A stretch of 64,000 nucleotides of DNA from Unio delphinus. Lineage: Eukaryota > Mollusca > Bivalvia > Unionida > Unionidae. The position numbers and the translations under genes were made by a program. The notes beneath the pieces were generated by a model, which made no database searches, had not been told where the DNA came from, and saw only the letters and a list, made by a program, of their open reading frames with translations. The stretch spans positions 3,695,001 to 3,759,000 of the forward strand of contig JAQISU010000097.1 of assembly GCA_029339505.1 (NCBI GenBank). The letters run 5' to 3'. Shown one piece after another: positions 27,011 through 47,577 of the stretch (positions within the stretch are counted from its first letter, which is position 1; the number at the start of each line of letters is the position of its first letter).

Positions 27011-27399
27011 AGTAGTAATATGGGGCACTCTAGCGTCAAGGGAAAATCCAGTCAAAAACAGCTTGGGCTAATCTAGCGTCAAGGGGAATTTAACATGGTG
27101 GGCCTATCTAGCGTCAAGGGAAATTTAACATGGGAACTATTTGGGCCTATCTAGCGTCAAGGGAAATTGAACATGGTGGGCCTATCTAGCGTCAAGGGAA
27201 ATTGAACATGGTGGGCCTATCTAGCGTCAAGGGGAATTGAACATGGGAACTATTTGGGCCTATTTAGCCTCAAGGGACATGAAACATGGGGAATATGATT
27301 TGTATGGGTATAGGGAAACTGTCTAGGGACAAGGGAAAAAAAGGGTGGCAATGAAAGCTACTATCTTTTCGAGACTTATGAGTGGCCCTGAAAAGGGCC
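27011..27399 (+). repeat. Left terminal inverted repeat of element 2
   Basis: 389 bp, the inverted partner of 47189-47577. It is made largely of six units beginning CTAGCGTCAAGGGRAAWT, plus one diverged TTAGCCTCAAGGG unit, spaced about 35-45 bp apart. The inner end contains a histone-type stem-loop on the minus strand (27384-27399) with its purine element at 27363-27370. Confidence 0.96.
27384..27399 (-). terminator. Histone-type 3' stem-loop no. 1 (left inverted repeat)
   Basis: On the minus strand it reads GGCCCT-TTTC-AGGGCC followed by ACTCA, then a CTCGAAAAGAT purine element about 14 nt on. It lies 27 nt after the stop of the minus-strand basic gene. This is the metazoan replication-dependent histone mRNA 3' end consensus: 6-bp stem, 4-nt loop, ACYCA flank and a U7-type downstream element. 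Confidence 0.85.
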
Positions 27400-27426
27400 G
27401 TTATGTGTAATGTTAACGTTGTCTTG

Positions 27427-27660
27427 TTAACACAGAGGACATCTCACAGATCTTCTTCTCTTCCTTAAACTTCTCCTTACTGTGGGTCCATAGAAGAGAA
27501 CTCTCTTCAAGCAACCTTGTCTTTCCACATAGACTCTTCTCTTCCAATAGGCTGTCTCCGTCCTATGAATGACACTCCATGATGATCTGACATACATGGG
27601 TATGTCAGTCCTAAACAGCATACTTGACACAAGGGTTGACGATTCAACATTAGTCCACAT
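27427..27660 (-). CDS. Small Arg-rich protein, left-end gene of element 2
   Basis: 77 residues from the ATG at 27660. The C-terminal half is strongly basic (YWKRRVYVERQG, RRSLRKRRRSVRCPLC), suggesting nucleic-acid binding. A TATAAATA box lies at 27703-27710, about 45 nt upstream. A histone-type stem-loop follows the stop by 27 nt, so the mRNA would be very short and possibly non-polyadenylated. No family was recognised. It is divergent from the gene at 27879, with which it shares a promoter region. Confidence 0.6.
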   Translation of the reverse strand: MWTNVESSTLVSSMLFRTDIPMYVRSSWSVIHRTETAYWKRRVYVERQGCLKRVLFYGPTVRRSLRKRRRSVRCPLC

Positions 27661-27699
27661 CTTCTGATGAGAACAGGTGAATCGAATGCCGTGTACTGC

Positions 27700-27830
27700 G
27701 GTTATTTATAGGGGAAGAGCGGATTGAAACGGATTGAGTGTATCCACCAATCCAAACGTGCGCTACAAAAGTCAGACACAGCCATCCAATCGGAAGAGAG
27801 CAGTCTGTGACGTCACCTTTTCTATATAGA
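27700..27830. promoter_or_regulatory. Divergent promoter with CCAAT boxes, CRE and two TATA boxes
   Basis: Between the divergent left-end genes lie TATAAATA on the minus strand (27703-27710), CCAAT-like boxes at about 27747 and 27786, a perfect CRE/ATF palindrome TGACGTCA at 27808-27815, and TCTATATAGA at about 27820 on the plus strand. CCAAT plus TATA is also a common histone-gene promoter arrangement. Confidence 0.65.
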
Positions 27831-27878
27831 GGTACTAGCGCCTGTGCGCAGTCAATCGATTCAAGAGAGTTGTCAATC

Positions 27879-28517
27879 ATGGCGGACCCTAAGAAGACAA
27901 TGAATTGGAGTGAGACAGGAGTAGAGACAGCAAGTCATGGACCAACAGTGACTACTAAAGCCATGACAAATCTACATCCAGAAGAAGTTGATTTTAACTG
28001 GGATATTGTGGATTTTTTAACATCGCAAGAATTTATTCCGGAACCTTCGTTGCCTTCTGTATCTTCTTATGGACACGTCGATGATTTTAAGCAGAGACAA
28101 AAAGAAGCATTGGAGCGATTTTTACAACAACAGAAAGTAGAAGAACAAGCTTTTCTTATGCAACAGCAGGAAGAAGAAGAAGCAAGAAGAAAACACCAGG
28201 AAGAAACAGTAGCAGCAACGGAGAAGAATGAAGACCAAGGACAGAAAGAAAATAGTGAAAATCAAACGGTTACGACGGTACTTTTAGATATTTTAGCTGA
28301 GTTAAAGAGTCTGAAACAAATGTATCAGACTTCTTTATCACGACCGAAGAGAAAAAGACCTTCTCGAGCGAAACAACCCGATCTCTCTGTGACTACGTCT
28401 ACCTTACCACCGTTAGTGATTTCTACCAAATCATTGACAGGAACCACCAGTCCCGAAGTAGGCCTTGGCCGTGGCAAAGGCTTAAGACAGCTCAAGAGGA
28501 TTTCATCCCGTTTCTGA
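27879..28517 (+). CDS. Coiled-coil accessory protein with basic tail, left end of element 2
   Basis: 212 residues from the ATG at 27879 (MADPKKTMNW). An acidic N-terminal region (HPEEVDFNWDIVDFLTSQEF) could act as a short interaction motif. A Gln/Glu-rich coiled coil spans about residues 65-130. A Leu-rich helix (VLLDILAELKSLKQMYQ) follows, then a Lys/Arg-rich patch (RPKRKRPSRAK) and a Gly/Arg tail. No family was recognised. A TATA box lies about 55 nt upstream, and a histone-type stem-loop lies 33 nt after the stop. The open frame upstream of 27879 covers the promoter and is not used. Confidence 0.65.
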   Translation: MADPKKTMNWSETGVETASHGPTVTTKAMTNLHPEEVDFNWDIVDFLTSQEFIPEPSLPSVSSYGHVDDFKQRQKEALERFLQQQKVEEQAFLMQQQEEEEARRKHQEETVAATEKNEDQGQKENSENQTVTTVLLDILAELKSLKQMYQTSLSRPKRKRPSRAKQPDLSVTTSTLPPLVISTKSLTGTTSPEVGLGRGKGLRQLKRISSRF

Positions 28518-28550
28518 GTTTGTTTTGTTTTAAATACACAAAACACCAAC

Positions 28551-28566
28551 GGTCCTTTTCAGGACC
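28551..28566 (+). terminator. Histone-type 3' stem-loop no. 2
   Basis: GGTCCT-TTTC-AGGACC with CCAAC before it and ACTCC after it. A GAAAAGAA purine element lies at 28581-28588. The third stem pair is T-A here instead of C-G in copies 1 and 5, a compensatory change that supports RNA pairing. Confidence 0.88.
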
Positions 28567-28590
28567 ACTCCAATTATTTCGAAAAGAAAT

Positions 28591-28827
28591 ACTATGTCAA
28601 TTGCCTATTTCAATGAAAACTCAAAAGTCCTTTATGTTTTTAAAAACCCATGATGTACGTGTGAGTGAATGAATGTGTGAGTGTAGGTAATTATACTATC
28701 AAATCAAAACCAAGAGACACTTACGTTTTTTCTCTTTAGTTTATTCTAGTACAAACGTCACAATTCAATATCACAACATAACATAACACAAGACCACTTT
28801 AAAAAAGTTCATAGGTTTTCTTCTGTT
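28591..28827. other. Intergenic region between convergent genes of element 2
   Basis: Contains an AATAAA signal on the minus strand (28740-28745) for the zinc-knuckle gene and a GTGAGTGAATGAATGTG repeat-like tract. Confidence 0.5.
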
Positions 28828-29310
28828 TTACTCTTTCTGTTTTTTCATTTTCTTTACTGTCACAGCTTTTTTTTCTTCCTCTTCACTTTCGTTTCGTCTT
28901 CTTTTCTTGTTTTTGTGAACGTGACGGGGTTCTTCCTTGGAGGAGGGTACCTCTTTCTCCTCCTGTTCAGAATTTCTTTCCTCCTCCTCCTCCTCTTCCT
29001 CCGCCTCCTCCTCCTCCTCCTGCTCCTGTTGTTTCTTAGGGCAGTTTGGAGACCAATGTCCTTTCTCTTTACAATAATAACAGGTATCTTGACTTTTGTC
29101 TCTATTGTAGCCTTTTTTATTTTTGTTACGATCTGAACATTCTGTAGCCCAATGTCCTTTCTTCTTACAGATATAGCAAGTATCTTGACTTTTATCTCGA
29201 TAGGAGGGAGAGTAGGCTGTCGGCTGGTCTGACGAAAACTTTCGTATGACCCCACGTAAAGCTCTAATGAGAAGTTCCACTTGTGTAGGTTCTTCCATCG
29301 TTCTGGTCAA
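28828..29310 (-). CDS. Gag-like double CCHC zinc-knuckle protein, element 2
   Basis: 160 residues. Two zinc knuckles, CYICKKKGHWATEC and CYYCKEKGHWSPNC (CX2CX4HX4C), are joined by a basic linker. A long Glu-rich tract and a Lys/Arg-rich tail follow. This is the layout of retroviral nucleocapsid or CNBP-type single-stranded nucleic-acid binding proteins. The two knuckle units are near copies of each other (RDKSQDTCY occurs in both), so they arose by internal duplication. A TATATATAAAGG box lies about 40 nt upstream on the minus strand, back to back with the polymerase gene. Its start may be Met1 or Met5. A conventional AATAAA lies about 85 nt downstream. Confidence 0.82.
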   Translation of the reverse strand: MTRTMEEPTQVELLIRALRGVIRKFSSDQPTAYSPSYRDKSQDTCYICKKKGHWATECSDRNKNKKGYNRDKSQDTCYYCKEKGHWSPNCPKKQQEQEEEEEAEEEEEEEERNSEQEEKEVPSSKEEPRHVHKNKKRRRNESEEEEKKAVTVKKMKKQKE

Positions 29311-29433
29311 TGTGAGAGTGAAAGGAATACTGAACCGTTAGACACTAACCCTTTATATATATGCACGGATCGAACATGAATATATAGGGGTTATGGTCTT
29401 TAAAAGGTAGTCATTTGACTTTTTGCAGACAAG
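29311..29433. promoter_or_regulatory. Divergent promoter of the zinc-knuckle and polymerase genes
   Basis: Minus-strand TATATATAAAGG at about 29350-29361. On the plus strand there are TATA-like GAATATATAGGGG at about 29378 and CTTTAAAAGG at about 29398, 28 nt before the polymerase ATG. Confidence 0.5.
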
Positions 29434-32400
29434 ATGAAAAGGCCACATCATGCTGTGGAGAAAGGAAAAGATAGTAAGAGACAGAAACGTAATGTATCGC
29501 CTAGCACAGTAGCTGAAGTCTTGGCTCAAATTCATGCCAGTGATTTTGAAGATGACATGAGTGAGCCCGAATCCACACCCAGACAATCCACGTCCAAGCA
29601 AAGTGCACCACCCTTAGTAAACCCTGAAAATTACTATCACATTCGAGAGACAGAAAAGCGTTCCTCTCGAAAATTTAGAACAACGGCTTACACGTATGCC
29701 GTAAAGTTTAAAGATTTCAAGGCCAATGTACCTTTGGAGAATACAGAAGGGTTCATTACTGAGGTGTGGGATTCTGTGTTAACTGCACTGAAACAGCAAT
29801 GTCAAGCCAAAGAAGACGATCGCTTGAGACTTTCTATTCATCACGATAATTTGAAGTCTCCCGTTTGGATCGAGTTTACTAGCCCATCAGAATTAACACC
29901 TTCCAAAGTCATCGACAAAATTCAACATGTGCAACAATCCAACGACAAGTTTCACATTGACGATGGAAAAGCCACACTGTTTATGACCCACGTGTCTCTT
30001 CCCCAGGGGACAGGACGCAAAAAAGTATTATTGGTCGACAACCTTCGCAACACCAAACTAAGCCTCGTCCGAATTAACAATCCTCAAGACCAGATGTGTT
30101 TAGCCCGTGCTGTCGTCGTGGGACGAACGTATGCCAACAAGAACGACACGGCAGAATGGAAAAGAGCCTGGAAAACTATTCAACAATCGGACCGAGCCAA
30201 ACAAAGAAGTGAAGCAGAACTCCTGTTACAGCAAGCGGGGATATCCAAAGACACTCCTTGTGGCATTCCAGAAATGCAAAAGTTGCAAGACGTCTTGGCT
30301 CCACGTTACACCTTGAAAGTACACCCTCAAGAAGTGCGTGGACCTCTTTTGTTTCGAGGCCACGATTTCAAAGACCGAAAATACATTCACGTCTATCATC
30401 ACGATGGTCATTTTGATACCATTACCAGTATCACTGGATTCCTGGGATACAGTTACTACTGTGAAAAATGTGACTATGGTTATAACAATCGAGAACAACA
30501 CAAGCATTGTGGATCAAAATGTGAGGGATGTTTGGCCTCACAACCTTGTCTGGACCAAGGACAAGAAAGAGTTCATTGTCCTGTGTGTCAGCGCACTTTT
30601 GTCAGTCCTACCTGTTACCAACAACATTTGAAGATGCAAGGTTCACAGCAGAAAAGTGCTTGTCAACTGCTGAGATTGTGCCCTACTTGTGGACAAGGCA
30701 TACGTACTAGTAATGCCAAGTTTCACGTTTGTCGAGGGAAGAAACGATGTCACATTTGTTGCCAAATCGTGGACTTGGAGCACGAATGCTTCATTCAAAA
30801 ATATCAACCCCAACCAAAAGATACCCAGAAGAAAGGGAATTTTATCTTTTTTGATTTCGAATGCATGCAAGAAACTGGTATTCACATTCCTAATTTCTGC
30901 GTAGCTCACCGTGCGTGCGAGCAGTGCATCCAAGAACCTATCTTTAGTCATTGCCCTTACTGCAGCAAGATTCCTGGAGGACGTGAAAAAATCTTTCGAG
31001 GGTCAAACACGCTAGCCGATTTTGCCCAATGGATCCTAAACCCCATCGACGAAACGTGGAGTCCAGAAGACATCGAACGTTACGGCAATTGTCATTGCCA
31101 TGCCACGGTCATGGCTCACAATTTCTCGGGATACGATGGGCAATTTCTGCTTAGATACTATGCGGAACAAAGTACCGAACGGCCTCAAGTGACTTTGAAC
31201 GGAGTCAAAATCATTTCTATGCAAGTAGGACAAGTACAGTTTAAAGATTCGATGTGTTACTTGGCCATGCCATTAAGTCGCATGCCTAAAACGTTTGGAA
31301 TGACAGAAATGGCTAAAGGTTATTTTCCACACTTTTTTAATACCAAAGCCAATCAACATACCGTTCTACCCCATTTGCCTGAGGCTGACGACTACGACCC
31401 CGACAACATGCGCACCGAACAACGAGAAGCTTTCTATGCTTGGTACCAGACTCACGCCTCGGACCCCTTTGACTTTCAAGAAGAAATGTTAAAGTACTGT
31501 CGATCTGACGTGGACATTTTACGACGTTGCTGTGGAAAATTTCGAGAATTGTTCATGGAATACGGAGGGATCGATCCTTTGAAAGAAGCTTGTACCATCG
31601 CCAAAGCGTGTTCTTTAGTGTACCGAAAACGCTTTATGCCTGAAAATACTCTAGCGGTCATCAGTCCTCAAACGACAAATTTTGTCAAACGTCAATACTC
31701 GGTCAAAGCCCTACGCTGGCTCCATTACTTGTGCGACAAGGAAGACAAATGGATCCAACACGCTCGCAACGGAGGAGGCGAAAAGACCATCGGAACGTAT
31801 TCGGTAGATGGTTGGGACTTAGAAAACCCTCAGATTGTGTACGAGTTTAACGGATGTTTATTTCACGGATGTCCCCTATGCTACCCTCAACGAGACACCA
31901 AAAATCAGTTTTTACAACGAACCATGGAAGACTTGTACCAGACTACGTGTCAGCGACGTTTGAAGTTAGAACAGCAAGGATACCAGGTGGTGGAAATGTG
32001 GGAACACGAGTACGATCAGCGTTTGAAAACCGATCCCGAGTTTAAACGCATCGTAGAAAGTTACAAGTGGGTGGACCCCCTGAACCCTCGGGATAGTTTG
32101 TACGGAGGACGAACGAATGCTACCTGTTTACTGTACCAAGCGGACGAGGAGAAGGGAGAAGAAATCAAATACTTGGACGTGTGTTCGTTGTATCCTTACG
32201 TGTGCAAATATTGTCACTTTCCCGTAGGGCATCCAGAATTGATGACAGAACACATTGATTTGGACCACATTCGACAGTACGAAGGATTGATCAAGTGTAA
32301 AGTCTTACCACCCACAGACTTGTACCATCCCGTTTTACCTCACCATTGCCAAGGAAAACTGATGTTTCCTTTGTGTCGCACATGTGCCGAAACGTGCAAC

Positions 32401-33504
32401 CAAGACCAACCTTGTCATCACACTCAGGAAGAACGTGCCTTGACAGGAACGTGGGTGAGCGCGGAATTGCTTAAAGCTCTAGACCTGGGATATCAACTGT
32501 TAGAAGTGTACGAAATTTACCACTTTCCCAAAACACAACAATACTGCAAGGGCGACGAGACACAGAAAGGTATTTTTGCAGACTACGTGGATGCCTTTTT
32601 AAAACTAAAACAAGAAGCTAGTGGCTATCCTTCCTGGTGTCACACTCCCGAAGACCAAAAGATATTCAAAGAAAAATATCGGGAGCAGGAAGGTATCACT
32701 TTAGACCACATCGAGAAAAACGAAGGAAGGCGGTCGTTTGCCAAAGTGATGCTCAATTGTTTGTGGGGTAAAATGGCACAACGTCCGTCTTTACCCAAGA
32801 CGGAGTATTTGTCCGAACCGTCTCGCTACTTCCAGATGATTCACGACCCAACCAAAGTCATCAAACACGTGGACGTCATTCGTGAGGACTTGATCTTAGT
32901 GAATTACGAAGAAGAACTAGACTTTGTAGAAGCCGACAAATTTGGAAATGTCATCATTGCGGCTTACGTGACAGCCCACGCTCGCTTAAAATTGTACGAA
33001 GTGTTAGAACTGTTAGGAGATCGCGTGTTGTATTTTGACACGGACAGTTGCATTTACATTCACCGACCGAACCAGTGTAACCCTGTCATCGAAGGAGACC
33101 GTTTAGGAGCCTGGACCGATGAACATCCCGACGACAAGATTCTATGTTTTGCAAGTGGCGGTCCTAAAAATTACGGCTACGAATACCGAGACCCCCAAGG
33201 AAAAATGCACACCGAATGTAAAGTAAAGGGATTGACTCTTAATTATCGCACCAGTCAAGTGGTGAACTTTGACGTACTACAAGAAGCCTTGCAGTCGGGA
33301 CAGGATGAAACGTTTCAAGTGACTACCCACGAACCGCACAAGATTGTCCGTTTACCCACACACCAAATTGTTAGCCGACCTTTGGAAAAAGTCTATCAAA
33401 TCGTGTACCAAAAGAGAGTACGACTTCCCAATCACTTCACTCTACCGTACGGTCACGTCAAAATTGGGCAGCATATAAAAAGGGATATCGTCCAAGACCA
33501 ATAG
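29434..33504 (+). CDS. Protein-primed family B DNA polymerase, element 2
   Basis: 1356 residues, the replicative polymerase of Polintons. Exonuclease motifs are FFDFEC (about residue 472), MAHNFSGYDGQF (about 560) and YCRSDVDIL (about 688). Polymerase motif A is LDVCSLYPYV (about 914). Motif B is KVMLNCLWGK (about 1104). Motif C is YFDTDS (about 1200). Insertions between A and B fit the protein-primed subgroup. A Cys/His-rich stretch at about residues 340-452, with many CxxC pairs, lies before the exonuclease domain and probably binds zinc. The first 300 residues carry no recognised motif and may hold the terminal-protein region. The frame is fully open with no decay. Confidence 0.96.
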   Translation: MKRPHHAVEKGKDSKRQKRNVSPSTVAEVLAQIHASDFEDDMSEPESTPRQSTSKQSAPPLVNPENYYHIRETEKRSSRKFRTTAYTYAVKFKDFKANVPLENTEGFITEVWDSVLTALKQQCQAKEDDRLRLSIHHDNLKSPVWIEFTSPSELTPSKVIDKIQHVQQSNDKFHIDDGKATLFMTHVSLPQGTGRKKVLLVDNLRNTKLSLVRINNPQDQMCLARAVVVGRTYANKNDTAEWKRAWKTIQQSDRAKQRSEAELLLQQAGISKDTPCGIPEMQKLQDVLAPRYTLKVHPQEVRGPLLFRGHDFKDRKYIHVYHHDGHFDTITSITGFLGYSYYCEKCDYGYNNREQHKHCGSKCEGCLASQPCLDQGQERVHCPVCQRTFVSPTCYQQHLKMQGSQQKSACQLLRLCPTCGQGIRTSNAKFHVCRGKKRCHICCQIVDLEHECFIQKYQPQPKDTQKKGNFIFFDFECMQETGIHIPNFCVAHRACEQCIQEPIFSHCPYCSKIPGGREKIFRGSNTLADFAQWILNPIDETWSPEDIERYGNCHCHATVMAHNFSGYDGQFLLRYYAEQSTERPQVTLNGVKIISMQVGQVQFKDSMCYLAMPLSRMPKTFGMTEMAKGYFPHFFNTKANQHTVLPHLPEADDYDPDNMRTEQREAFYAWYQTHASDPFDFQEEMLKYCRSDVDILRRCCGKFRELFMEYGGIDPLKEACTIAKACSLVYRKRFMPENTLAVISPQTTNFVKRQYSVKALRWLHYLCDKEDKWIQHARNGGGEKTIGTYSVDGWDLENPQIVYEFNGCLFHGCPLCYPQRDTKNQFLQRTMEDLYQTTCQRRLKLEQQGYQVVEMWEHEYDQRLKTDPEFKRIVESYKWVDPLNPRDSLYGGRTNATCLLYQADEEKGEEIKYLDVCSLYPYVCKYCHFPVGHPELMTEHIDLDHIRQYEGLIKCKVLPPTDLYHPVLPHHCQGKLMFPLCRTCAETCNQDQPCHHTQEERALTGTWVSAELLKALDLGYQLLEVYEIYHFPKTQQYCKGDETQKGIFADYVDAFLKLKQEASGYPSWCHTPEDQKIFKEKYREQEGITLDHIEKNEGRRSFAKVMLNCLWGKMAQRPSLPKTEYLSEPSRYFQMIHDPTKVIKHVDVIREDLILVNYEEELDFVEADKFGNVIIAAYVTAHARLKLYEVLELLGDRVLYFDTDSCIYIHRPNQCNPVIEGDRLGAWTDEHPDDKILCFASGGPKNYGYEYRDPQGKMHTECKVKGLTLNYRTSQVVNFDVLQEALQSGQDETFQVTTHEPHKIVRLPTHQIVSRPLEKVYQIVYQKRVRLPNHFTLPYGHVKIGQHIKRDIVQDQ
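33473..33485 (+). promoter_or_regulatory. TATA box for the BIR gene inside the polymerase 3' end
   Basis: CATATAAAAAGGG lies about 60 nt before the ATG at 33540, within the last codons of the polymerase gene. Confidence 0.5.
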
Positions 33505-33539
33505 TTCATTTATCACTACAACGACCCAGCGAAAAGAAG

Positions 33540-34088
33540 ATGAATCCATTTAAACAGACATCATTCAAATTTGGGAATTCTCAAGTGGAGTGCGATGCTA
33601 AACCTTGCGATTGTAGTGATGCCAGGCTCTGTGACGTTAGCGATTCAGCAGGATATCGTGGGAACTTTGCTATGACTACTACCCCTATATCTACCCTGGA
33701 AAGTGATGCTGTGCGTGTCAAACCTGAGGGATGCGAAAGCGGTGCGTCACGTTATCGTGGACTCCTAGGAATTTCACCGTACCTACATCGAACTGAAGTG
33801 AGGAGAGTCGAATATTCGTTCCCGACGAGTTTGCCTGAATACTGCCACTTTAAAAGTCGATTCCAAACCTTCAAAGATAAATGGCCAAAATATCTGCCTG
33901 GACCAACTCCTGAAGAATTAGCCAGAGCTGGATTTTTCTACTTGGGCGAAGGAGATAAAGTCAAGTGTTTCAGTTGTGGTGTATCCATTTACGAGTGGGA
34001 ACATAAAGATTCCGCTTACCTGGAACATGCTCGATGGTCTCCGAATTGTCAATACCTACCTTTAGTGGGACCTAGTGATTGGAAGTGA
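33540..34088 (+). CDS. BIR-domain protein (viral IAP homologue), element 2
   Basis: 182 residues. The C-terminal 80 residues form one baculovirus IAP repeat. Zinc ligands follow the exact CX2CX16HX6C spacing, beginning at CFSCGVSIYEW (about residue 142) and ending at ARWSPNC. The GFFYLGEGDKVKCF lead-in is typical. There is no RING domain. The first 100 residues include a Cys-rich patch without known homology. BIR proteins inhibit caspases or bind apoptosis regulators, so a role in delaying death of the infected cell is likely by family, not shown here. It was probably captured from an animal host. It sits between the polymerase and a set of small unknown genes. Confidence 0.9.
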   Translation: MNPFKQTSFKFGNSQVECDAKPCDCSDARLCDVSDSAGYRGNFAMTTTPISTLESDAVRVKPEGCESGASRYRGLLGISPYLHRTEVRRVEYSFPTSLPEYCHFKSRFQTFKDKWPKYLPGPTPEELARAGFFYLGEGDKVKCFSCGVSIYEWEHKDSAYLEHARWSPNCQYLPLVGPSDWK

Positions 34089-34100
34089 CACTACTACTCC

Positions 34101-35332: not shown

Positions 35333-35359
35333 ACATGCATTCAAATAAACGTGTCTTGA

Positions 35360-35424: not shown

Positions 35425-36156
35425 ATGGCTCACTCTACTCTTTCTACTACTCCTTCCTCCTCCACATTCAAAGTCATTGACGAACACTTAGATCAGGCTA
35501 GTTGGAAAGCCTTGTATCTTCGTCATCCTTTTAACATGTTAATTGCTGGACCGAGCGGTTCAGGCAAAACCGAATTTGTCAAACGTTTGATCGAACATAA
35601 ACATCATTTGATCGATCGTCCACCTCAACGCATCGTGTGGTGTTACAAAGAGTGGCAATCGGCATACAGCCTCTTGCAAGAAAGTCAAGGTGATTCCATT
35701 GTGTTTGTAGCAGGCATTCCTAAAGAAGACGAGGGGATCGTGTCTGACCCTAGTCAAACTCATTGGGTTATTTTTGATGACATGTTAGGAGAAGACGAAG
35801 AAGAAATTAAACTGTGGTTTACACGTAAAGGGCATCATCGTAATGCCAGTGTCATTTACATTACACAAAATTTATTTCAACAAAGTAAAGCCCATCGTAC
35901 CATTAGTCTCAATGCTCATTACGTGGTCTTGTTTAAAAGTCCTCGAGATAAATCACAAGTGCAAGTTTTAGCCAAACAGTTAGGAACACCTTGGCTAACT
36001 CATGCGTACGATGATGCCACTCAAACGCCACACGCCTATTTACTCGTGGATTTAAAACCCACTACCCCTGATTATTTGCGATTTCGTACCGATTTGTTTC
36101 ACGACTGGTGTCAAGACGGAGGACTTGTCGTGTACACGTCCTCCTCGTCGACATAA
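35425..36156 (+). CDS. Genome-packaging ATPase (A32/FtsK-HerA type), element 2
   Basis: 243 residues from the ATG at 35425 (MAHSTLS). Walker A is GPSGSGKT at residues 42-49. Walker B is WVIFDDM at about 116, followed by an acidic loop. A VIYITQNLFQQ sensor-like segment follows. It is homologous to the element 1 ATPase (4119-4778) in motif order. It drives DNA packaging into capsids in this virus class. Confidence 0.93.
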   Translation: MAHSTLSTTPSSSTFKVIDEHLDQASWKALYLRHPFNMLIAGPSGSGKTEFVKRLIEHKHHLIDRPPQRIVWCYKEWQSAYSLLQESQGDSIVFVAGIPKEDEGIVSDPSQTHWVIFDDMLGEDEEEIKLWFTRKGHHRNASVIYITQNLFQQSKAHRTISLNAHYVVLFKSPRDKSQVQVLAKQLGTPWLTHAYDDATQTPHAYLLVDLKPTTPDYLRFRTDLFHDWCQDGGLVVYTSSSST

Positions 36157-38736: not shown

Positions 38737-39849
38737 ATGGAGAAGGTATTAGCCAGCATTTACTACGATCCAGCTCACCCTGCAGGTTACGGAGGCATTC
38801 AGAAATTGTATCGTGCTGCCAAAACTCGCCTGAAAAAGCTCCGTTTACCAGCAGTACAACGATGGTTACAAGAACAAGCGACGTACACTTTACACAAACC
38901 CATTCGACGAAAATTTCACAGAAGTCGCACTCAAGTGGAAGGCATCGATCATCAATGGCAAGCCGATTTAGCTGATGTCTCTCATTTAGCCACCTACAAT
39001 CGTGGCTACAAATATTTGTTTTGTGTCATCGACGTCTTTTCTAAATTTGCCTGGGTCGTACCATTGACATCCAAATCGAGCGGAGAGTTAGTACGAGCTT
39101 TGCAACTGGTGTTGAAACAAAGCGCTCGTCACCCTCTTCGATGGCAAACCGACAAAGGCACCGAATTTCTGAACCAAGCTTTTCAACGAGAATTAAAAAA
39201 ACGTGACATTCATTTTTTCACCACCGAAAATCCTGAAACCAAAGCCAGTATCGTGGAACGTTTTCAACGTACCTTGAAAGAACGCATGTGGAAATATTTT
39301 ACACATCAACACACTCTCAAGTACATCGACGTCTTACCACACTTAGTCCAAGCCTACAATCAATCTTACCATAGAAGCATTGGACGTGCCCCACAAGAGG
39401 TGACACCTGACAACGAAGTCACTGTTTTTGAGCGTCTGTTTGGTACGTCCCGGACGAGGGCTGTCCCCAAGAAAGGTAGAGAAGTGTTAACCCCGGGAGA
39501 TTGGGTACGCATTGGCAAAACCAAACGCACTTTCGACAAAGGTTACTTACCCAACTGGACCACCGAATTGTTTCGTGTTACTGGACGAGTGCGCGATCGT
39601 CATCCTACCGTCTATAAATTGGAAGACATGAACGGAGAAGTATTAAAAGGAACATTTTACTTGCCTGAGTTACAACGTGTTACCAAAAAAGAAGACGACG
39701 TGTACGACATTGAAAGCATTCTCGAACGAAGAACCCGTAAAGTAGGAAAACGTCGTGTCAAAGAAGTCAAAGTACGTTGGAAAGGATATCCTCCTAGTTT
39801 TGATTCTTGGATTGACGCTTCGCAAGTCATCGACTATAAAAAGAAGTGA
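38737..39849 (+). CDS. Polinton DDE integrase with C-terminal chromodomain, element 2
   Basis: 370 residues from the ATG at 38737 (MEKVLASIYY). The catalytic triad is D77 (WQADLADV), D139 (WQTDKGTEF) and E174 (ASIVERFQRTL), with 35 spacing between the last two. A DNA-binding barrel-like region precedes a chromodomain at about residues 320-369 (YDIESILERR..VKVRWKGYPPSFDSW). Chromodomains read histone methyl-lysine and can steer integration, as in chromovirus retrotransposons. The element 1 integrase lacks this domain. The frame is intact. Confidence 0.95.
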   Translation: MEKVLASIYYDPAHPAGYGGIQKLYRAAKTRLKKLRLPAVQRWLQEQATYTLHKPIRRKFHRSRTQVEGIDHQWQADLADVSHLATYNRGYKYLFCVIDVFSKFAWVVPLTSKSSGELVRALQLVLKQSARHPLRWQTDKGTEFLNQAFQRELKKRDIHFFTTENPETKASIVERFQRTLKERMWKYFTHQHTLKYIDVLPHLVQAYNQSYHRSIGRAPQEVTPDNEVTVFERLFGTSRTRAVPKKGREVLTPGDWVRIGKTKRTFDKGYLPNWTTELFRVTGRVRDRHPTVYKLEDMNGEVLKGTFYLPELQRVTKKEDDVYDIESILERRTRKVGKRRVKEVKVRWKGYPPSFDSWIDASQVIDYKKK

Positions 39850-39854
39850 CCATC

Positions 39855-40301: not shown

Positions 40302-40321
40302 CGTTACCCAGTGACAGTTCC

Positions 40322-41200: not shown

Positions 41201-41207
41201 AAAAGTG

Positions 41208-41648: not shown

Positions 41649-41676
41649 AAGTGAAGAAAAAAAACCTAAAGAAAAA

Positions 41677-43017
41677 ATGATGCACCAAGAATCTTGTGCC
41701 TGTTCCAAGTCGGAACTGGATCTCTTTGCCATGCCACCCACGATGATGACCATGCAAGAAGCTCAATGGGTCGAATTTCATCCCGTCTCCTCTTTGACGG
41801 ATTCAGCTCCCATCGAGTTTGAAATCAAAGGACAACCCGAAGATTACATCGATCTCAACAACAGTTACTTGTATTTGAAACTGAAAGTAAGCAAAACAGA
41901 CAACACCAATCCAGGAGCCAATGATAGAGTAGCTCCTGTCAACAATTTCATGCATTCCTTGTTCAGCGATGTGGATTTGTACATGAATAACAAACTGATC
42001 AGCAGTAGCATGGATACTTACCCTTACCGAGCGTACCTCGAAAATCTCTTGACGTACGGAAAAGAAGCCAAGAACACTCATCTAGATGCTTGCGTGGTAT
42101 GGAAACCTGACACTGCAGATAAGTTTAACGACACAGCCTTGCCCGTAGCAGCAGCTGCTGATGGCAGCGCTCCTGCCGATCCTCACAATGAAGGTTTTAA
42201 CGAGCGTCGAAAGAAAATTTTGCAAGGACGTAGTTTAGAACTGTTCGATCGTTTGCATTTGGACATGTGGTTTCAAGAGAAGTATTTGCTGAACGGAGTA
42301 GATATTCGCTTGAGACTGAATCGAAGTAGTACTGCTTTCCATTTGATGGCTCATGCCAACGAATACAAAACCATTATCCAAGAAGCCAGGTTATACGTAC
42401 GTCGCGTGGAAGTGTTACCTAAAGTGGGAAATGATATCAGTCACACTTTGAGCAGAACGACAGCCAAGTATCCGATACGACGCGTGGAAGTCAAAACTTT
42501 CACCATTGCCGCTGGACTCCGATCTAAGATCGAAGATCATCTGTTCCAAGGACAGTTACCCAAACGTTTATTCATTGGTATCGTCAGCAATGCAGCCCTC
42601 AATGGTGCCCACGATGAAAATCCTTTCCAGTTTAAGCACTGCAGAGTATCCAAAATTGAAGTCAGTCGCGATGGCAAAACTTTGTGTACCAGACCCTTCG
42701 AACCCGACTTTGGCGAACAGAAAAATTACTTGAGGTCGTACTTGTCACTGTACGAAGCCACAGGACAGTTAGGAACCAACACCAGTCACGGTATTTCCTA
42801 CGACGACTATGCAAGAGGTTACACGTTGTGGGCTTTTGATTTCACTCCAGACCAAGGCAGCGACGAGGGACATTTCCACCCTATAAAATCTGGGCAACTG
42901 CGTGTGGAACTTCAGTTTGCAGCACCTCTTCCCGAAACGGTGAATATCATTCTGTATGCTGAATTCGATAATACCATAGAAATTAACAGTTTTAGAGAAG
43001 TCATTCTAGACTATTAG
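41677..43017 (+). CDS. Double jelly-roll major capsid protein, element 2
   Basis: 446 residues from the first of two tandem ATG codons at 41677/41680. N-terminal SSLTDSAPIEFEIKGQPEDY and DLNNSYLYLKLKV are the classic Polinton hexon opening. FMHSLFSDVDLYMNNKLIS, RLHLDMWFQEKYLLNGVDIR and the C-terminal GQLRVELQFAAPLPETVNI follow in the expected order. It forms the trimeric hexons of the icosahedral shell. The frame is intact. The open frame upstream of 41677 overlaps the previous gene and has no earlier ATG. Confidence 0.93.
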   Translation: MMHQESCACSKSELDLFAMPPTMMTMQEAQWVEFHPVSSLTDSAPIEFEIKGQPEDYIDLNNSYLYLKLKVSKTDNTNPGANDRVAPVNNFMHSLFSDVDLYMNNKLISSSMDTYPYRAYLENLLTYGKEAKNTHLDACVVWKPDTADKFNDTALPVAAAADGSAPADPHNEGFNERRKKILQGRSLELFDRLHLDMWFQEKYLLNGVDIRLRLNRSSTAFHLMAHANEYKTIIQEARLYVRRVEVLPKVGNDISHTLSRTTAKYPIRRVEVKTFTIAAGLRSKIEDHLFQGQLPKRLFIGIVSNAALNGAHDENPFQFKHCRVSKIEVSRDGKTLCTRPFEPDFGEQKNYLRSYLSLYEATGQLGTNTSHGISYDDYARGYTLWAFDFTPDQGSDEGHFHPIKSGQLRVELQFAAPLPETVNIILYAEFDNTIEINSFREVILDY

Positions 43018-43022
43018 ACATT

Positions 43023-43520: not shown

Positions 43521-43557
43521 AGAAAGGAGATAAAAACACAAGGCTACACAACAAAAA

Positions 43558-44115
43558 ATGGATACCTGGGAACTTTATTATCTTTTGAACCGTAGTTCGT
43601 ACACTGCTTCTTGGAATCCTGTCGTGTGTGCTAAAGATGAACTACCTCATCGCAAACCTCAAGAGAATCAAGCTTATGTCATCAACACAGATGACAGTCA
43701 TCTTCCAGGAACTCACTGGGTAGCTGTCTACTTTCCTCAAGAGGGTTGTGCGGAGTATTTTGATTCGTATGGATTGCCTCCTTTCGAAGATGATATCATT
43801 GACTTTATGAGAAGAAATGCTCAGACGACACGATTCAATAATGTGAAATTACAAAGCACAGATTCTATGGTGTGTGGACAATATTGTATCTATTATCTGC
43901 ATCATCGCAGTCTTGGATATTCTTTAGAACATTTAGTGACTTATTTTGATCGTCATTCGTCTCGAAACGATGACAAAGTAGATCGATGGTTTTGTGACCA
44001 TTATGGTTATCTGTTGTCTTTAGCTAGGAAACGTAGTGTACATCAATCGCCCAATGATTTCCAACAGTGGAAATCTCAATTTAATTCACAACGTTGTCAA
44101 CCATGTCAAAGATAA
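43558..44115 (+). CDS. Adenain-like cysteine protease, element 2
   Basis: 185 residues. Catalytic His53 (GTHWVAVYF), Asp69 (EYFDSYGLPP) and Cys106 (MVCGQYCIYY) are in the order and spacing of adenovirus-type Ulp1-fold proteases, which mature capsid precursors. The frame is intact. A GATAAAAAC TATA-like box lies about 30 nt upstream. The stop is followed by a triplicated ATGTTTGTTCTTTGAAATA unit and AATAAA at 44193-44198. Confidence 0.93.
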   Translation: MDTWELYYLLNRSSYTASWNPVVCAKDELPHRKPQENQAYVINTDDSHLPGTHWVAVYFPQEGCAEYFDSYGLPPFEDDIIDFMRRNAQTTRFNNVKLQSTDSMVCGQYCIYYLHHRSLGYSLEHLVTYFDRHSSRNDDKVDRWFCDHYGYLLSLARKRSVHQSPNDFQQWKSQFNSQRCQPCQR

Positions 44116-44326
44116 TGTATTGGTGTTATGGAAGAAAAAAATGTTTGTTCTTTGAAATAATGTTTGTTCTTTGAAATAATGTTTGTTATTTGAATAAAAA
44201 TGTTGTGTTTTGAAAACCAATGCGTCTGTCGTTTGTTTTACATTTGTATTCATATAAATGCTCTTTGACTTTTCTTTCTATCCCTCACATCAAACTATCT
44301 AAACGTTTCAAAACCCTAAACCGCAG
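44116..44326. other. 3' region of the late cluster with polyadenylation signal
   Basis: Three direct copies of TGTTTGTTCTTTGAAATAA-like units lie at about 44142-44198, the last including AATAAA at 44193. This is a conventional poly(A) end for the rightward core cluster. The open frame starting at 44220 lies upstream of the next gene's promoter and is not its start. Confidence 0.55.
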
Positions 44327-44367
44327 AGGGGTGTTTTCTATCACGTCCGCGCTTGAACCATATAAAG
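44327..44367 (+). promoter_or_regulatory. Right-end promoter box, copy 1, with TATA
   Basis: GGGGTGTTTTCTATCACGTC continues as CGCGCTTGAACC and runs into ATATAAAG (44360-44367). The same box lies before the next two genes. Confidence 0.75.
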
Positions 44368-44420
44368 CAGGGGTAGTCTCCAGTCTGGCCATCCATTGTT
44401 TGACTCATCCTCCTACGAAG

Positions 44421-44774
44421 ATGTGCTCAAGACTAGCTAAGCTGAACGAAGCTTATGTCACTCTGCATCGTATCAGACACAATCTGATGCCAAAGCCTGA
44501 AGAGATTGAGAATGTAAGAATGCTACAAGTAACGGAAGACCTCATAGAAGAACTCTTCAGAGAGGAAATTCAAAAAGAGAAAGAAGAATGGACTGAGAAG
44601 TATCGACTTCAAAAGCAGCAGAGAGAGCAGAGAGAACAGCATCAGCAACAACATCAGCAGGAACCAGACAGAAGTTTTGTCGACTGTCGTGTGGACACAA
44701 AAGAGTTCTCTTTCTCTTTCCGAAGAAGCAGACCCTATCGTGTAGCCAAACGAGGACGCAATCTTAGACGATAA
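44421..44774 (+). CDS. Right-end accessory gene A, coiled-coil basic protein, element 2
   Basis: 117 residues from the ATG at 44421 (MCSRLAKLNEAYV), chosen because it lies 55 nt after the TATA box. It is helical, with a Glu/Lys/Gln coiled coil (EEIQKEKEEWTEKYRLQ), a Gln/His run, and a basic C-terminus (RRSRPYRVAKRGRNLRR). The N-terminus resembles the next gene (MSRVQKLRELQMHL), so the two are probably duplicates. A histone-type stem-loop lies 41 nt after the stop. The function is unknown. Confidence 0.62.
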   Translation: MCSRLAKLNEAYVTLHRIRHNLMPKPEEIENVRMLQVTEDLIEELFREEIQKEKEEWTEKYRLQKQQREQREQHQQQHQQEPDRSFVDCRVDTKEFSFSFRRSRPYRVAKRGRNLRR

Positions 44775-44815
44775 AAGATTGTCATCCTTCCTCGTACACA
44801 CAAACACAAAAAAAC

Positions 44816-44831
44816 AGCCCTTTTCAGGGCT
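44816..44831 (+). terminator. Histone-type 3' stem-loop no. 3
   Basis: AGCCCT-TTTC-AGGGCT followed by exactly ACCCA, then GAAAAGAA at 44845-44852. The outer pair is A-T here and G-C in copies 1, 2 and 5, another paired change. Confidence 0.88.
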
Positions 44832-44852
44832 ACCCAATATTCTCGAAAAGAA

Positions 44853-45100
44853 TTAATTATTCAATTTGCTTATGGTATGTGAGGAAGTTAGAAAAAAATA
44901 GAAGTGAGTCTATAATCACTGTCTCTTTTAACTTTTGTTTTGAAGTGCGTCTATAAGCACAACGTATTTTTTCAAAATAACTTGTTCAATGTATAATTAA
45001 TAGGAGTCAAGTATAAAAGTGAGTGAGTGTTTTATTTTAAAAGTCAGCTTGTTTTGTTTTTTTTTGGTAATGATAGGGATAATGTAAGTTTCTTGGATCT
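44853..45100. other. Non-coding spacer between right-end genes
   Basis: AT-rich, with two near copies of a GTCTATAATCACTG/GTCTATAAGCACAA phrase. No gene is seen. Confidence 0.45.
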
Positions 45101-45210
45101 AGGGGGTGTTTTCCATCACGTCCGCGTGTTTTGGTAATGATAAGGATACTGTAAGATTTTGGAACGTAAAGGGGTGTTTTCCATCACGTCCGCGCTTGAA
45201 CTATATATAA
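45101..45210 (+). promoter_or_regulatory. Right-end promoter box, copies 2a and 2b, with TATA
   Basis: The GGTGTTTTCCATCACGTCCG box occurs twice, at 45105-45124 and 45173-45192, within a duplicated unit of about 66 bp (GGTAATGATARGGATA precedes each). Only the second leads into a TATA box (CTATATATAA, 45201-45210). Confidence 0.75.
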
Positions 45211-45260
45211 AAAAGCACTCGTCAGTCTGGCTACCTATCGTTGACGCATCAACACAAAAG

Positions 45261-45749
45261 ATGAGTAGAGTTCAAAAGCTAAGAGAGCTTCAGATGCACT
45301 TGGAGAATGCGAGGCGTCTCCTGGACGAACTGGCAATGGAGGCCTTAGAAGAACAGACTAGGATTGAAAAAGAAGAGGAGGAAAGAAAAAGGAAAGAAGA
45401 GGAGGAGAAGAGAAGACCTATCTTGCCTCACCGTATGATGAGACAAACAAGTCAAGTTACTCCTATGGTGAGGACGCCTTCACCACCAGAACCAGTTCGT
45501 CCACTACAGACACAAGCCCCACCGCAACAAACACAACCTCAACCGCAACAACCACAGCCTCAGCCGCAACAACGACAGTTGCGGAATAGGCGAAGATATG
45601 AAGAGGCTTTCACTATCCCTCAAACAGAAGACTGGGATAGTGAAGCCACTCATTCTCCCTCTGCACTCCCAATCACAAGAGTGAATTGGGAGAATGATTG
45701 GAGTAGGAGATGTGTGTGTGGGGCTAGACCTGGGAGATGCCAGCATTAA
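45261..45749 (+). CDS. Right-end accessory gene B, coiled-coil Pro/Gln-rich protein, element 2
   Basis: 162 residues from the ATG at 45261, about 50 nt after the TATA box. A helical N-terminus and a charged Glu/Lys/Arg coiled coil (KEEEERKRKEEEEKRR) are followed by a Pro/Gln repeat (QPQPQQPQPQPQQ). The C-terminus ends with RRCVCGARPGRCQH, three Cys and one His that could bind metal. It is related to gene A at the N-terminus. A histone-type stem-loop lies 27 nt after the stop. Confidence 0.62.
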   Translation: MSRVQKLRELQMHLENARRLLDELAMEALEEQTRIEKEEEERKRKEEEEKRRPILPHRMMRQTSQVTPMVRTPSPPEPVRPLQTQAPPQQTQPQPQQPQPQPQQRQLRNRRRYEEAFTIPQTEDWDSEATHSPSALPITRVNWENDWSRRCVCGARPGRCQH

Positions 45750-45776
45750 CCAGGTGCAATTTGAAGTTTTAAAAAC

Positions 45777-45792
45777 AGCCCTTCTCAGGGCT
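45777..45792 (+). terminator. Histone-type 3' stem-loop no. 4
   Basis: AGCCCT-TCTC-AGGGCT followed by ACCCA, then GAAAAGAA at 45806-45813. The downstream phrase ATACTATGTCAATTGCC is shared with stem-loop no. 2. Confidence 0.88.
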
Positions 45793-45884
45793 ACCCAAAT
45801 AACTAGAAAAGAATACTATGTCAATTGCCAATGAGTATGAGAGAGGAGTAGTGTGATTATAAACACTGACTCTGTTTAGATGGT

Positions 45885-46470
45885 ATATGTTGTGATTTTG
45901 GATAGTATATGATAGGGTGTGTTTTGGCTGCTTCCCCGTGTGTGTGGTTAGTATAGGGTGTGATTTTGGATAGTATATGATAGGGTGTGTTTTGGCTGCT
46001 TCCCCGTGTGTGTGTGGTTAGTATAGGGTGTGATTTTGGATAGTATATAGTAAGGTTTGTTTTGGCTGCTTCCCCGTGTGTGTGGTTAGTATAGGGTGTG
46101 ATTTTGGATAGTATATAGTAGGGTGTGTTTTGGCTGCTTCCCCGTGTGTGTGTGGTTAGTATAGGGTGTGATTTTGGATAGTATATAGTAGGGTTTGTTT
46201 TGGCTGCTTCCCCGTGTGTGTGTGGTTAGTATAGGGTGTGATTTTGGATAGTATATAGTAGGGTTTGTTTTGGCTGCTTCCCCGTGTGTGTGGTTAGTAT
46301 AGGGTGTGATTTTGGATAGTATATAGTAGAGTTTGTTTTGGCTGCTTCCCCGTGTGTGTGGTTAGTATAGGGTGTGATTTTGGATAGTATATAGTAGGGT
46401 TTGTTTTGGCTGCTTCCCCGTGTGTGTGGTTAGTATAGGGTGTGATTTTGGATAGTAAATGATAGGGTTT
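45885..46470. repeat. 68-72 bp tandem repeat, about 8 copies, upstream of gene C
   Basis: Each unit contains GTGATTTTGGATAGTATAT and TTTTGGCTGCTTCCCCGTG. The array ends just before promoter box copy 3. It may act as an enhancer-like or origin-like array. Confidence 0.92.
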
Positions 46471-46502
46471 GTGGATAGTATCTAATATGACAAGTGAATG
46501 TA

Positions 46503-46542
46503 GGGGGTGTTTACTTTCACGTCCGTGCTTAAGATATATATA
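46503..46542 (+). promoter_or_regulatory. Right-end promoter box, copy 3, with TATA
   Basis: GGGGGTGTTTACTTTCACGT then CCGTGCTTAAG and a TATATATA box at about 46534-46541. Confidence 0.7.
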
Positions 46543-46589
46543 CTCAAAGTGACTGACATTAGAACCATTCCACGGAATAACCATAGAAG

Positions 46590-47168
46590 ATGGCAAAAGC
46601 ATCAAGTTTATTCAACAATTTAAGACACAGCTATTTCTGGATATTAGACGGGGAATATGAAGTGGAAAAACTACATCATAAATGGAAGATTGCGAAGAGT
46701 TTGGACTTTGCAAAAAGACTGAAAATAGCCAGGGAGCTCTTAGGAGGAATGCTAGAAGAAGAAGCCAAAAAGTTACGAGGCTGCATTAATCCACCCTATG
46801 TTAGAGTGGGGACATTGAAGCAAGTAATAGATATTGTCGAAAACGTCAAGTGTTTTTTGGATAATATCTTGACAGAGTACCCCCATGTCCAAAAGGGTTT
46901 GGACCCGCTCAAGAAAGCTGAAGAACTGATGAGAAAGGAACTATTAGAAGAAGTGAAGAAGATAAAAGATAACTGGAGTAAGGAGAGAAAGGAAAGAAAG
47001 GACAATGAAAACCAAAAAAAGAAAGAGGACTTTGAAAGATTAAATAACAATTGGATAAAGATACAAGAGAAGTTTAGAGCTATGGGGCATCCTGACTGGA
47101 TTCCCGACGAAAAGAAGAAGGGAATTTTTGGTAAAATCAAAAGGTGGTGGAACAAAGGCAGAAAATAA
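46590..47168 (+). CDS. Right-end accessory gene C, Lys-rich helical protein, element 2
   Basis: 192 residues from the ATG at 46590, about 50 nt after the TATA box. Predominantly helical and basic: KLHHKWKIAKSLDFAKRLK, then ELLEEVKKIKDNWSKERKER. The end is amphipathic and basic (KKKGIFGKIKRWWNKGRK), reminiscent of membrane-active peptides. No family was recognised. A histone-type stem-loop, inside the right inverted repeat, begins 21 nt after the stop. Confidence 0.62.
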   Translation: MAKASSLFNNLRHSYFWILDGEYEVEKLHHKWKIAKSLDFAKRLKIARELLGGMLEEEAKKLRGCINPPYVRVGTLKQVIDIVENVKCFLDNILTEYPHVQKGLDPLKKAEELMRKELLEEVKKIKDNWSKERKERKDNENQKKKEDFERLNNNWIKIQEKFRAMGHPDWIPDEKKKGIFGKIKRWWNKGRK

Positions 47169-47188
47169 AAGAAGAAGAAATATCCAAA

Positions 47189-47204
47189 GGCCCTTTTCAG
47201 GGCC
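47189..47204 (+). terminator. Histone-type 3' stem-loop no. 5 (right inverted repeat)
   Basis: CCAAA then GGCCCT-TTTC-AGGGCC then ACTCA, followed by a GAAAAGAT element at 47218-47225. The 5' flank CCAAA also matches the histone consensus. Confidence 0.9.
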
Positions 47205-47577
47205 ACTCATAAGTCTCGAAAAGATAGTAGCTTTCATTGCCACCCTTTTTTTCCCTTGTCCCTAGACAGTTTCCCTATACCCATACAAATCATATTCCCC
47301 ATGTTCCATGTCCCTTGAGGCTAAATAGGCCCAAATAGTTCCCATGTTCAATTCCCCTTGACGCTAGATAGGCCCACCATGTTCAATTTCCCTTGACGCT
47401 AGATAGGCCCACCATGTTCAATTTCCCTTGACGCTAGATAGGCCCAAATAGTTCCCATGTTAAATTTCCCTTGACGCTAGATAGGCCCACCATGTTAAAT
47501 TCCCCTTGACGCTAGATTAGCCCAAGCTGTTTTTGACTGGATTTTCCCTTGACGCTAGAGTGCCCCATATTACTACT
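47189..47577 (-). repeat. Right terminal inverted repeat of element 2
   Basis: 389 bp, the inverted partner of 27011-27399, almost identical to it. This supports a young insertion. Confidence 0.96.

What the first reader, a model, noticed from the sequence alone, without database searches (positions are those of the whole stretch)
27384..47225. Five terminal genes of a Polinton end in canonical histone-mRNA stem-loops
Each of the five small genes at the two ends of element 2 is followed, 21-42 nt after its stop, by a 16-nt stem-loop matching the replication-dependent histone mRNA 3' end. Positions are 27399-27384 (minus), 28551, 44816, 45777 and 47189. Stems are GGCCCT/AGGGCC, GGTCCT/AGGACC and AGCCCT/AGGGCT with TTTC or TCTC loops. 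The 3' flank is ACTCA, ACTCC or ACCCA, and a GAAAAGA purine element follows 14-15 nt later, where U7 snRNA pairs. Two stem positions vary as base-paired covariations, so RNA pairing is under selection. By established knowledge such ends bind SLBP, are cut by the U7 snRNP, are not polyadenylated and are translated mainly in S phase. At least three inner genes have AATAAA instead (near 28740, 35344, 44193). I infer a two-class expression programme: terminal accessory genes tied to S phase or to SLBP supply, core genes polyadenylated. I know of no description of this in Polintons.
Basis: partly seen in the sequence, partly recalled or inferred. Interest (0 to 1): 0.93.

Follow-up and report, generated by a model that had tools for sequence, protein, structure and literature searches.

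The report
Histone-style mRNA ends in a Polinton
A virus-like transposon in what looks like a clam genome ends its five outermost genes with the same RNA signals that the host uses to end its own histone messages, which suggests that these genes borrow the histone machinery instead of getting a poly(A) tail.

Summary
The Rfam histone 3'-end model hits all five stem-loops (32.8-37.0 bits; four of five above the cut-off of 34) and nothing else in the 64 kb at cut-off. They sit 20-41 nt after the stops of the five terminal genes of an intact-looking Polinton. In the host genome, 64 of 68 loci read around RF00032 matches were copies or pieces of this element family and 3 had histone matches. The host's tandem histone repeat shows the same loops, spacing and GAAAAGA element. 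A candidate host U7 snRNA was found; its 5' region, outside the searched core, pairs with sequence downstream of host histone and element genes alike (0 of 200 shuffles as good). Stems covary among g2-g4 copies on some measures. Caveats: the g1 and g5 loops are one TIR sequence (four independent sites, not five); g5 also has AATAAA at its stop; the U7 candidate is unproven. I infer histone-type, non-polyadenylated ends. S-phase timing is untested, and strong U7 pairing at g1/g5 could relax SLBP dependence. My literature searches found no earlier description.

The parts
27005..27010 (.). left target-site duplication GTTGTC
47578..47583 (.). right target-site duplication GTTGTC
27011..27399 (+). 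left TIR, ending inward at the g1 stem-loop
   Evidence: one mismatch (position 272) in the first 389 nt
47189..47577 (-). right TIR, ending inward at the g5 stem-loop
27427..27660 (-). g1, 77 aa, no known domain
   Evidence: copies in the genome
27384..27399 (-). g1 histone-type stem-loop GGCCCT/TTTC/AGGGCC
   Evidence: 34.6 bits
27364..27370 (-). g1 histone downstream element GAAAAGA
27661..27878 (.). divergent g1/g2 promoter region: TATA-like boxes, GTGACGTCAC palindrome, CCAAT-type boxes
   Evidence: shared words; CCAAT and TATA by eye
27879..28517 (+). g2, 212 aa, no known domain; 19 homologues
28551..28566 (+). g2 stem-loop GGTCCT/TTTC/AGGACC, same 16 nt as the host H1-like gene
   Evidence: 35.3 bits
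28581..28587 (+). g2 histone downstream element
44328..44358 (+). promoter box of g3
   Evidence: 1 mismatch of 31 to the g4 box
44421..44774 (+). g3, 117 aa (longer ORF from 44220), no known domain
44816..44831 (+). g3 stem-loop AGCCCT/TTTC/AGGGCT
   Evidence: 34.9 bits
44845..44851 (+). g3 histone downstream element
45171..45201 (+). promoter box of g4 (partial second copy at 45103)
45261..45749 (+). g4, 162 aa, no known domain
45777..45792 (+). g4 stem-loop AGCCCT/TCTC/AGGGCT
   Evidence: 32.8 bits, below the gathering score of 34
45806..45812 (+). g4 histone downstream element
46504..46534 (+). promoter box of g5
   Evidence: 7 mismatches of 31
46590..47168 (+). g5, 192 aa, all-helical model (pLDDT 80), no confident structural relative
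47189..47204 (+). g5 stem-loop GGCCCT/TTTC/AGGGCC
   Evidence: 37.0 bits
47218..47224 (+). g5 histone downstream element
47164..47169 (+). AATAAA overlapping the g5 stop codon
28740..28745 (-). AATAAA about 83 nt after the CCHC gene
35344..35349 (+). AATAAA 12 nt after o34913
44193..44198 (+). AATAAA 78 nt after the protease gene
29434..33504 (+). family B DNA polymerase
   Evidence: PF03175 E 4.2e-42
38737..39849 (+). rve integrase with chromodomain
35425..36156 (+). A32-like packaging ATPase
   Evidence: PF04665 E 5.3e-7
41677..43017 (+). double jelly-roll major capsid protein
   Evidence: Foldseek matches to iridovirus, Sputnik, PBCV-1 and mavirus capsids, E 1.8e-16 to 1e-12 in the 50 listed

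Best explanation
The five terminal genes of this Polinton family carry complete copies of the host's replication-dependent histone 3'-end signal: a SLBP-type stem-loop, then a GAAAAGA downstream element that can base-pair with the host U7 snRNA. The most likely mechanism is that host SLBP and the U7 snRNP recognise the pre-mRNA, CPSF73 cuts it 4-5 nt after the stem, and the message leaves without a poly(A) tail. The core genes end at AATAAA. Shown here: the signals, their likeness to host histone ends, pairing with a candidate host U7, stem pairing across copies, and linkage to the terminal genes in many genomic copies. Inferred: that they are cleaved and not polyadenylated. Inferred more weakly: that terminal gene expression is thereby tied to DNA replication or to SLBP supply.
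For: Rfam hits at the five sites, four above cut-off. Host histone repeat L049 with H2A, H1-like, H3, H4 and H2B genes: same kind of 16-nt loop, same 13-14 nt spacing, GAAAAGA or GAAAAAGA; 4 of these 5 host ends are reported at gathering score, at 37.4-41.5 bits, and H4 is not, so the element's 32.8-37.0 bits are not out of line. 64 of 68 loci read around RF00032 matches are element-derived. Candidate U7 L054: the 30 nt 5' of the searched core pair with the ten downstream regions (mean -15.3 kcal/mol, 0/200 shuffles as low; the 7 other candidates read lie at 30-161/200; g1 and g5 are the same sequence). For each of the ten sites at most 1 of 15 control GAAAAGA sites in the window pairs as well. 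Pairs on the window loops plus 18 g2/g3/g4 copies: 92.4% of cells paired, 8 cells changed on both sides, covariation score 0.265, each reached by 1/500 shuffles. Terminal genes: 8 comparisons with near-full-length copies (1 for g1, 1 for g2, 4 for g4, 2 for g5, none for g3) give dN/dS 0.27-0.46.
Against: No RNA data. Loci were found through RF00032, so conservation of the g1/g5 loop is biased by ascertainment. In one search the number of pairs with changes on both sides (3 of 6) was reached by 88/500 shuffles and further pair types by 349/500; its shuffles ignore relatedness; and 5 copies without a usable loop were left out of that alignment (g2 in L010, L015, L016, L019; g3 in L028). Of 7 g2 copies 3 have unrelated sequence after the stop and 1 a broken stem; of 3 g3 copies 1 lacks the loop; of 13 g4 copies 5 have one to three broken pairs. 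The U7 candidate scores only 18.2 bits with RF00066 (cut-off 34) and its copy number could not be checked. g5 has AATAAA at its stop. Two more distant relatives, both partial, showed no RF00032 hit up to E 10. The promoter box of g3-g5 is found in only part of the copies.
Confidence: 0.83

Rival explanations
1. Relics: the element captured or copied histone gene 3' ends, and they no longer act; terminal genes use other, unrecognised poly(A) signals.
For: Many copies are decayed; 3 of 7 g2 copies have unrelated sequence there; weak poly(A) signals other than AATAAA/ATTAAA were not tested.
Against: Four sequence-distinct 3' regions at the same place after different genes; paired changes; U7 pairing beyond the core; no AATAAA or ATTAAA from 10 nt before to 400 nt after the stops of g1-g4; GAAAAG kept in 12 of 13 g4 copies.
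Confidence: 0.08
2. Dual-end genes: the loops work, but some terminal genes (g5 first) also make polyadenylated messages, as some histone genes do, so that expression outlasts S phase. This can be true together with the best explanation.
For: AATAAA overlaps the g5 stop; human H2AC18 has overlapping elements and two kinds of message (PMC9756948, abstract read).
Against: The g5 AATAAA lies in the Lys and stop codons, so it may be fortuitous; g1-g4 have none.
Confidence: 0.3
3. DNA-level function: the inverted repeats serve integrase or replication at the element ends rather than RNA processing.
For: The g1/g5 loop forms the inner edge of the TIR.
Against: The g2, g3 and g4 loops lie outside the TIRs, on the coding strand after a stop, with a matching downstream element; host histone genes have the same unit.
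Confidence: 0.03
4. Decoy: the loops mainly soak up host SLBP or U7 during infection and slow histone supply.
For: g1/g5 pair with the U7 candidate, over the whole region, better than the host genes read.
Against: In this element each loop sits as the 3' end of a coding gene and none is found elsewhere.
Confidence: 0.04

Closest known systems
Replication-dependent histone mRNA 3' end (Rfam RF00032, SLBP and U7 snRNP)
   Same: 16-nt stem-loop, flanks, spacing, purine downstream element, pairing with a U7 candidate, short distance after the stop
   Different: follows five non-histone genes of a mobile element; g3/g4 stems have an outer A-U pair not seen in the five host histone genes read; core genes of the same element carry AATAAA
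Polinton/Maverick and adintovirus elements
   Same: 6-bp target duplication, TIRs, PolB, rve integrase with chromodomain, A32-like ATPase, double jelly-roll capsid
   Different: histone-type 3' ends on the terminal genes; five terminal genes without known domains
Histoid genes of xeno-class adomaviruses (PMC11071296, passages read)
   Same: another link between small animal DNA viruses and histones
   Different: that is a protein resemblance; here the RNA 3' end is histone-like and the proteins matched no histone family
Human H2AC18 with overlapping histone and poly(A) elements (PMC9756948, abstract read)
   Same: model for g5, where AATAAA and a histone end are neighbours
   Different: there AATAAA overlaps the downstream element; here it overlaps the stop codon before the loop

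Membership tests
Histone 3' UTR stem-loop RF00032 | score above curated cut-off | tested here: met
   4 of 5 sites at 34.6-37.0 bits; g4 at 32.8 is below; the host H4 end is also not reported at cut-off
Histone 3' UTR stem-loop RF00032 | base pairing kept through paired changes | tested here: met
   22 distinct rows: percent paired, cells changed on both sides and covariation score 1/500; two other measures not significant (88/500, 349/500)
Histone 3' UTR stem-loop RF00032 | downstream element pairs with host U7 snRNA | tested here: inconclusive
   pairs strongly with candidate L054; candidate itself unproven (18.2 bits; family search silent)
Histone 3' UTR stem-loop RF00032 | mature mRNA without poly(A) | not testable with these tools
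   no transcript data
Histone 3' UTR stem-loop RF00032 | SLBP binding | not testable with these tools
   needs CLIP or gel shift
Polinton/Maverick | TIRs and 6-bp target duplication | tested here: met
Polinton/Maverick | protein-primed family B DNA polymerase | tested here: met
   PF03175 E 4.2e-42; protein priming itself not tested
Polinton/Maverick | rve integrase | tested here: met
   PF00665 E 4.9e-12
Polinton/Maverick | packaging ATPase | tested here: met
   PF04665 E 5.3e-7
Polinton/Maverick | adenovirus-type protease | tested here: inconclusive
   PF00770 E 0.021, below cut-off
Polinton/Maverick | double jelly-roll capsid | tested here: met
   fold match to Sputnik and mavirus capsids; no sequence match in PDB or Pfam

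The most novel reading that the evidence does not exclude
A family of self-synthesising transposons/viruses runs a two-class expression programme by 3'-end type. The terminal genes are processed by the host histone machinery (SLBP, U7 snRNP, no poly(A)) and are thereby coupled to host DNA replication, or freed from poly(A) control, while core genes are polyadenylated. The downstream elements track the host U7 sequence, with the outermost genes pairing over the whole region more strongly than the host histone genes read.
Probability: 0.5. Interest if true: 0.92.

Novelty: new variant of a known kind. Interest (0 to 1): 0.85.

Why it matters
By general knowledge (recalled, not from a call) histone-type 3' ends in animals are regarded as specific to replication-dependent histone genes. 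A mobile element that places them on its own genes would be a clear case of other genes using that pathway. It would give a natural set of test substrates for U7-mRNA coevolution, and it makes the timing of Polinton expression relative to S phase directly testable.

Tried and rejected
Chance: rejected (E 1.7e-7 to 6.2e-6 per site in 30 kb against all Rfam families, each after the stop of a terminal gene). Depletion of AATAAA on the coding strand as extra support: looked striking (3 against about 16 expected by base composition) but not significant under a second-order model (mean 5.8; 55 of 300 as low); dropped. DNA hairpin function of TIRs: rejected for g2-g4. U7 by Rfam family in the host genome: no match, and the control rang in none of 14 genomes. 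U7 by pattern: 167 places against 218 for the reversed control, i.e. chance. Only the first places were listed; from those I read 8, chosen for likeness to the vertebrate Sm site or to a sea-urchin Sm site that I recall; 7 of 8 were at chance in the pairing test. That the candidate is a decayed Polinton end was considered because its reverse complement resembles one; in 4 kb around it (L082) BLAST against the fetched loci and the window matched its core to nothing but itself, though repeats about 600 nt away are shared with many loci. Relatives in viral contigs: none; a pattern scan of viral contigs gave 3 loci without tblastn matches to the element; genome contigs gave 2 partial, distant loci without RF00032 hits. 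g5 fold: all-helical, no match at E 0.001 or better. Promoter box of g3-g5: within 1 mismatch of its 9-nt core in 1 of 4 g3, 4 of 7 g4 and 10 of 30 g5 copies examined, so not universal. Novelty searches (listings and starts of abstracts only) found no report of histone-type ends in Polintons or other viruses; most subscription papers are not held. Of papers, passages of PMC11071296, PMC7026596 and PMC10294476 and the abstract of PMC9756948 were read.
Full report
What is there. The window holds an intact-looking Polinton at 27011-47577 with a 6-bp target duplication GTTGTC on both sides and TIRs that match over 389 nt with one mismatch. It encodes a family B DNA polymerase, rve integrase with chromodomain, A32-like ATPase, a weak adenovirus-type protease match, and a capsid whose predicted fold matches iridovirus, Sputnik and mavirus capsids. 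Capsid homologues: 1246 at E 0.001, of which the best 120 were listed. The animal names given there are bivalves (Mercenaria, Ostrea, Crassostrea, Saccostrea), so the host is probably a bivalve (inference). The host genome is held as G000 (2.5 Gb, 1246 contigs).

The stem-loops. Four reach the curated cut-off and g4 is 1.2 bits under it. The genes are g1 27427-27660(-), g2 27879-28517, g3 44421-44774, g4 45261-45749 and g5 46590-47168, none with a convincing known domain. The gap from stop to stem is 20-41 nt and GAAAAGA follows 13-14 nt after the stem. The g1 and g5 loops are the innermost bases of the TIR, so both outward-reading genes end in the same TIR-borne signal; they count once as evidence.

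The host's own histone genes. The first 8 kb of contig C15 (L049) is a tandem histone repeat with H2A, H3, H4 and H2B and an H1-like gene. Each of the five genes is followed by GGYCCT-loop-AGGRCC, then GAAAAGA or GAAAAAGA after 13-14 nt. The loop of the H1-like gene is letter for letter that of g2. At gathering score 4 of these 5 host ends are reported (37.4-41.5 bits) and H4 is not.

Copies. The genome-wide RF00032 search scored only 75 of 434796 candidates and gave 74 matches, so it is no census. I read 68 loci: 60 have g5 or g1 protein matches, 1 another element protein, 3 only TIR sequence, 3 histone matches (one of them, L012, weak and on the other strand), 1 nothing recognised. Most g2-g4 loops in these loci were not the reason for fetching them. 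Of 13 g4 copies, 12 keep GAAAAG; 8 have a fully paired stem, wobble pairs included, and 5 have one to three broken pairs. Of 7 g2 copies, 3 keep a recognisable loop (in one of them GAAAAG is changed), 1 has a broken stem and 3 have unrelated sequence. Of 3 g3 copies, 2 keep a loop (one with a broken pair and a changed GAAAAG) and 1 does not (counted by eye). On the window loops plus 18 g2-g4 copies (5 copies without a usable loop left out), 92.4% of cells pair, 8 cells are changed on both sides and the covariation score is 0.265, each reached by 1 of 500 shuffles; the count of pairs with changes on both sides (3 of 6) was reached by 88 of 500 and further pair types by 349 of 500. The shuffles do not allow for relatedness. 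Eight comparisons with copies whose ORF is near full length give dN/dS 0.27-0.46 (none for g3).

U7. The Rfam U7 search of the genome was silent, as it was in its controls. A pattern of TCTTTTC followed by an Sm-like site gave 167 places, no more than the reversed control (218), so the pattern alone means nothing. I read 8 of the places listed. One, L054 (C112:2240620-2240780), has a hairpin just after the Sm-like site and aligns to RF00066 over its whole length at 18.2 bits, below the cut-off. The test that matters used only the 30 nt 5' of the searched core. In L054 they pair with the 30 nt after GAAAAGA of all five host histone genes and g1-g5 (mean -15.3 kcal/mol, 0 of 200 shuffles as low), while the other 7 candidates lie within their shuffles (30-161 of 200). 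Against 15 GAAAAGA sites in the window that follow no loop, each of the ten real sites is matched or beaten by at most 1. Over the whole region g1/g5 pair at -27.1, g2-g4 at -17.2 to -20.8, and host genes at -15.2 to -20.3 kcal/mol; in the 30-nt test host H4 (-20.9) is as strong as g1/g5 (-20.4). The core of L054 matches neither the window nor the other loci by BLAST. I could not check its copy number or promoter because the search service was busy.

Reading. The element's terminal genes carry the signals that a host histone gene has for U7-dependent 3' processing, in host dialect. The likeliest mechanism is host SLBP plus U7 snRNP cleavage by CPSF73 4-5 nt after the stem (PMC7026596, passages read), leaving no poly(A) tail. 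Core genes fit ordinary polyadenylation: the only plus-strand AATAAA outside g5 are 12 nt after o34913 and 78 nt after the protease gene. In the window, terminal genes also have promoters of their own: g3-g5 share a box directly upstream of a TATA, and g1/g2 share a divergent promoter with TATA-like boxes and a GTGACGTCAC palindrome; the box is found in only a part of the copies. That the programme follows S phase is an inference. Two facts cut against a simple S-phase lock: g1/g5 may pair with U7 strongly enough that SLBP is dispensable, as with strong duplexes in mammalian extracts, and g5 has AATAAA at its stop.

Novelty. Six literature searches gave no description of histone-type 3' ends in Polintons or other viruses in the held library. 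Both ingredients are known, so I file it as a new variant of a known kind. I could not learn how widely it is spread: g5 has 11 and g2 19 homologues in unnamed data. One g2 homologue, P0147, continues beyond the usual stop into residues compatible with a kept GAAAAG (by eye).

Noticed in passing
3825-20853: A second, different TIR element with rve integrase, A32-like ATPase, an AAA-domain ORF and an HNH-NUMOD1 ORF, without any RF00032 hit.
   Followed up: partly
28581-28612 and 45806-45836: g2 and g4 of this copy share ATACTATGTCAATTGCC after the downstream element, unlike the g4 copies read, which suggests exchange between 3' ends within the element.
   Followed up: no
L022:3985-4164: An H4-like fragment (41% identity) near a Polinton end and a g4 loop in the host genome.
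   Followed up: no
33540-34088: Inhibitor-of-apoptosis BIR domain gene in the core of the element (PF00653 E 1e-23).
   Followed up: no
58116 onward; 24372-25126; 55204-55942: Long tandem arrays with periods of 32, 21 and 39 bp outside the element.
   Followed up: no
45910-46480: A tandem repeat of about 60 bp upstream of g5, read by eye.
   Followed up: no
L052, L053: Polinton-type contigs inside bacterial MAGs (Escarpia endosymbiont, Breoghania), apparently eukaryotic contamination.
   Followed up: partly
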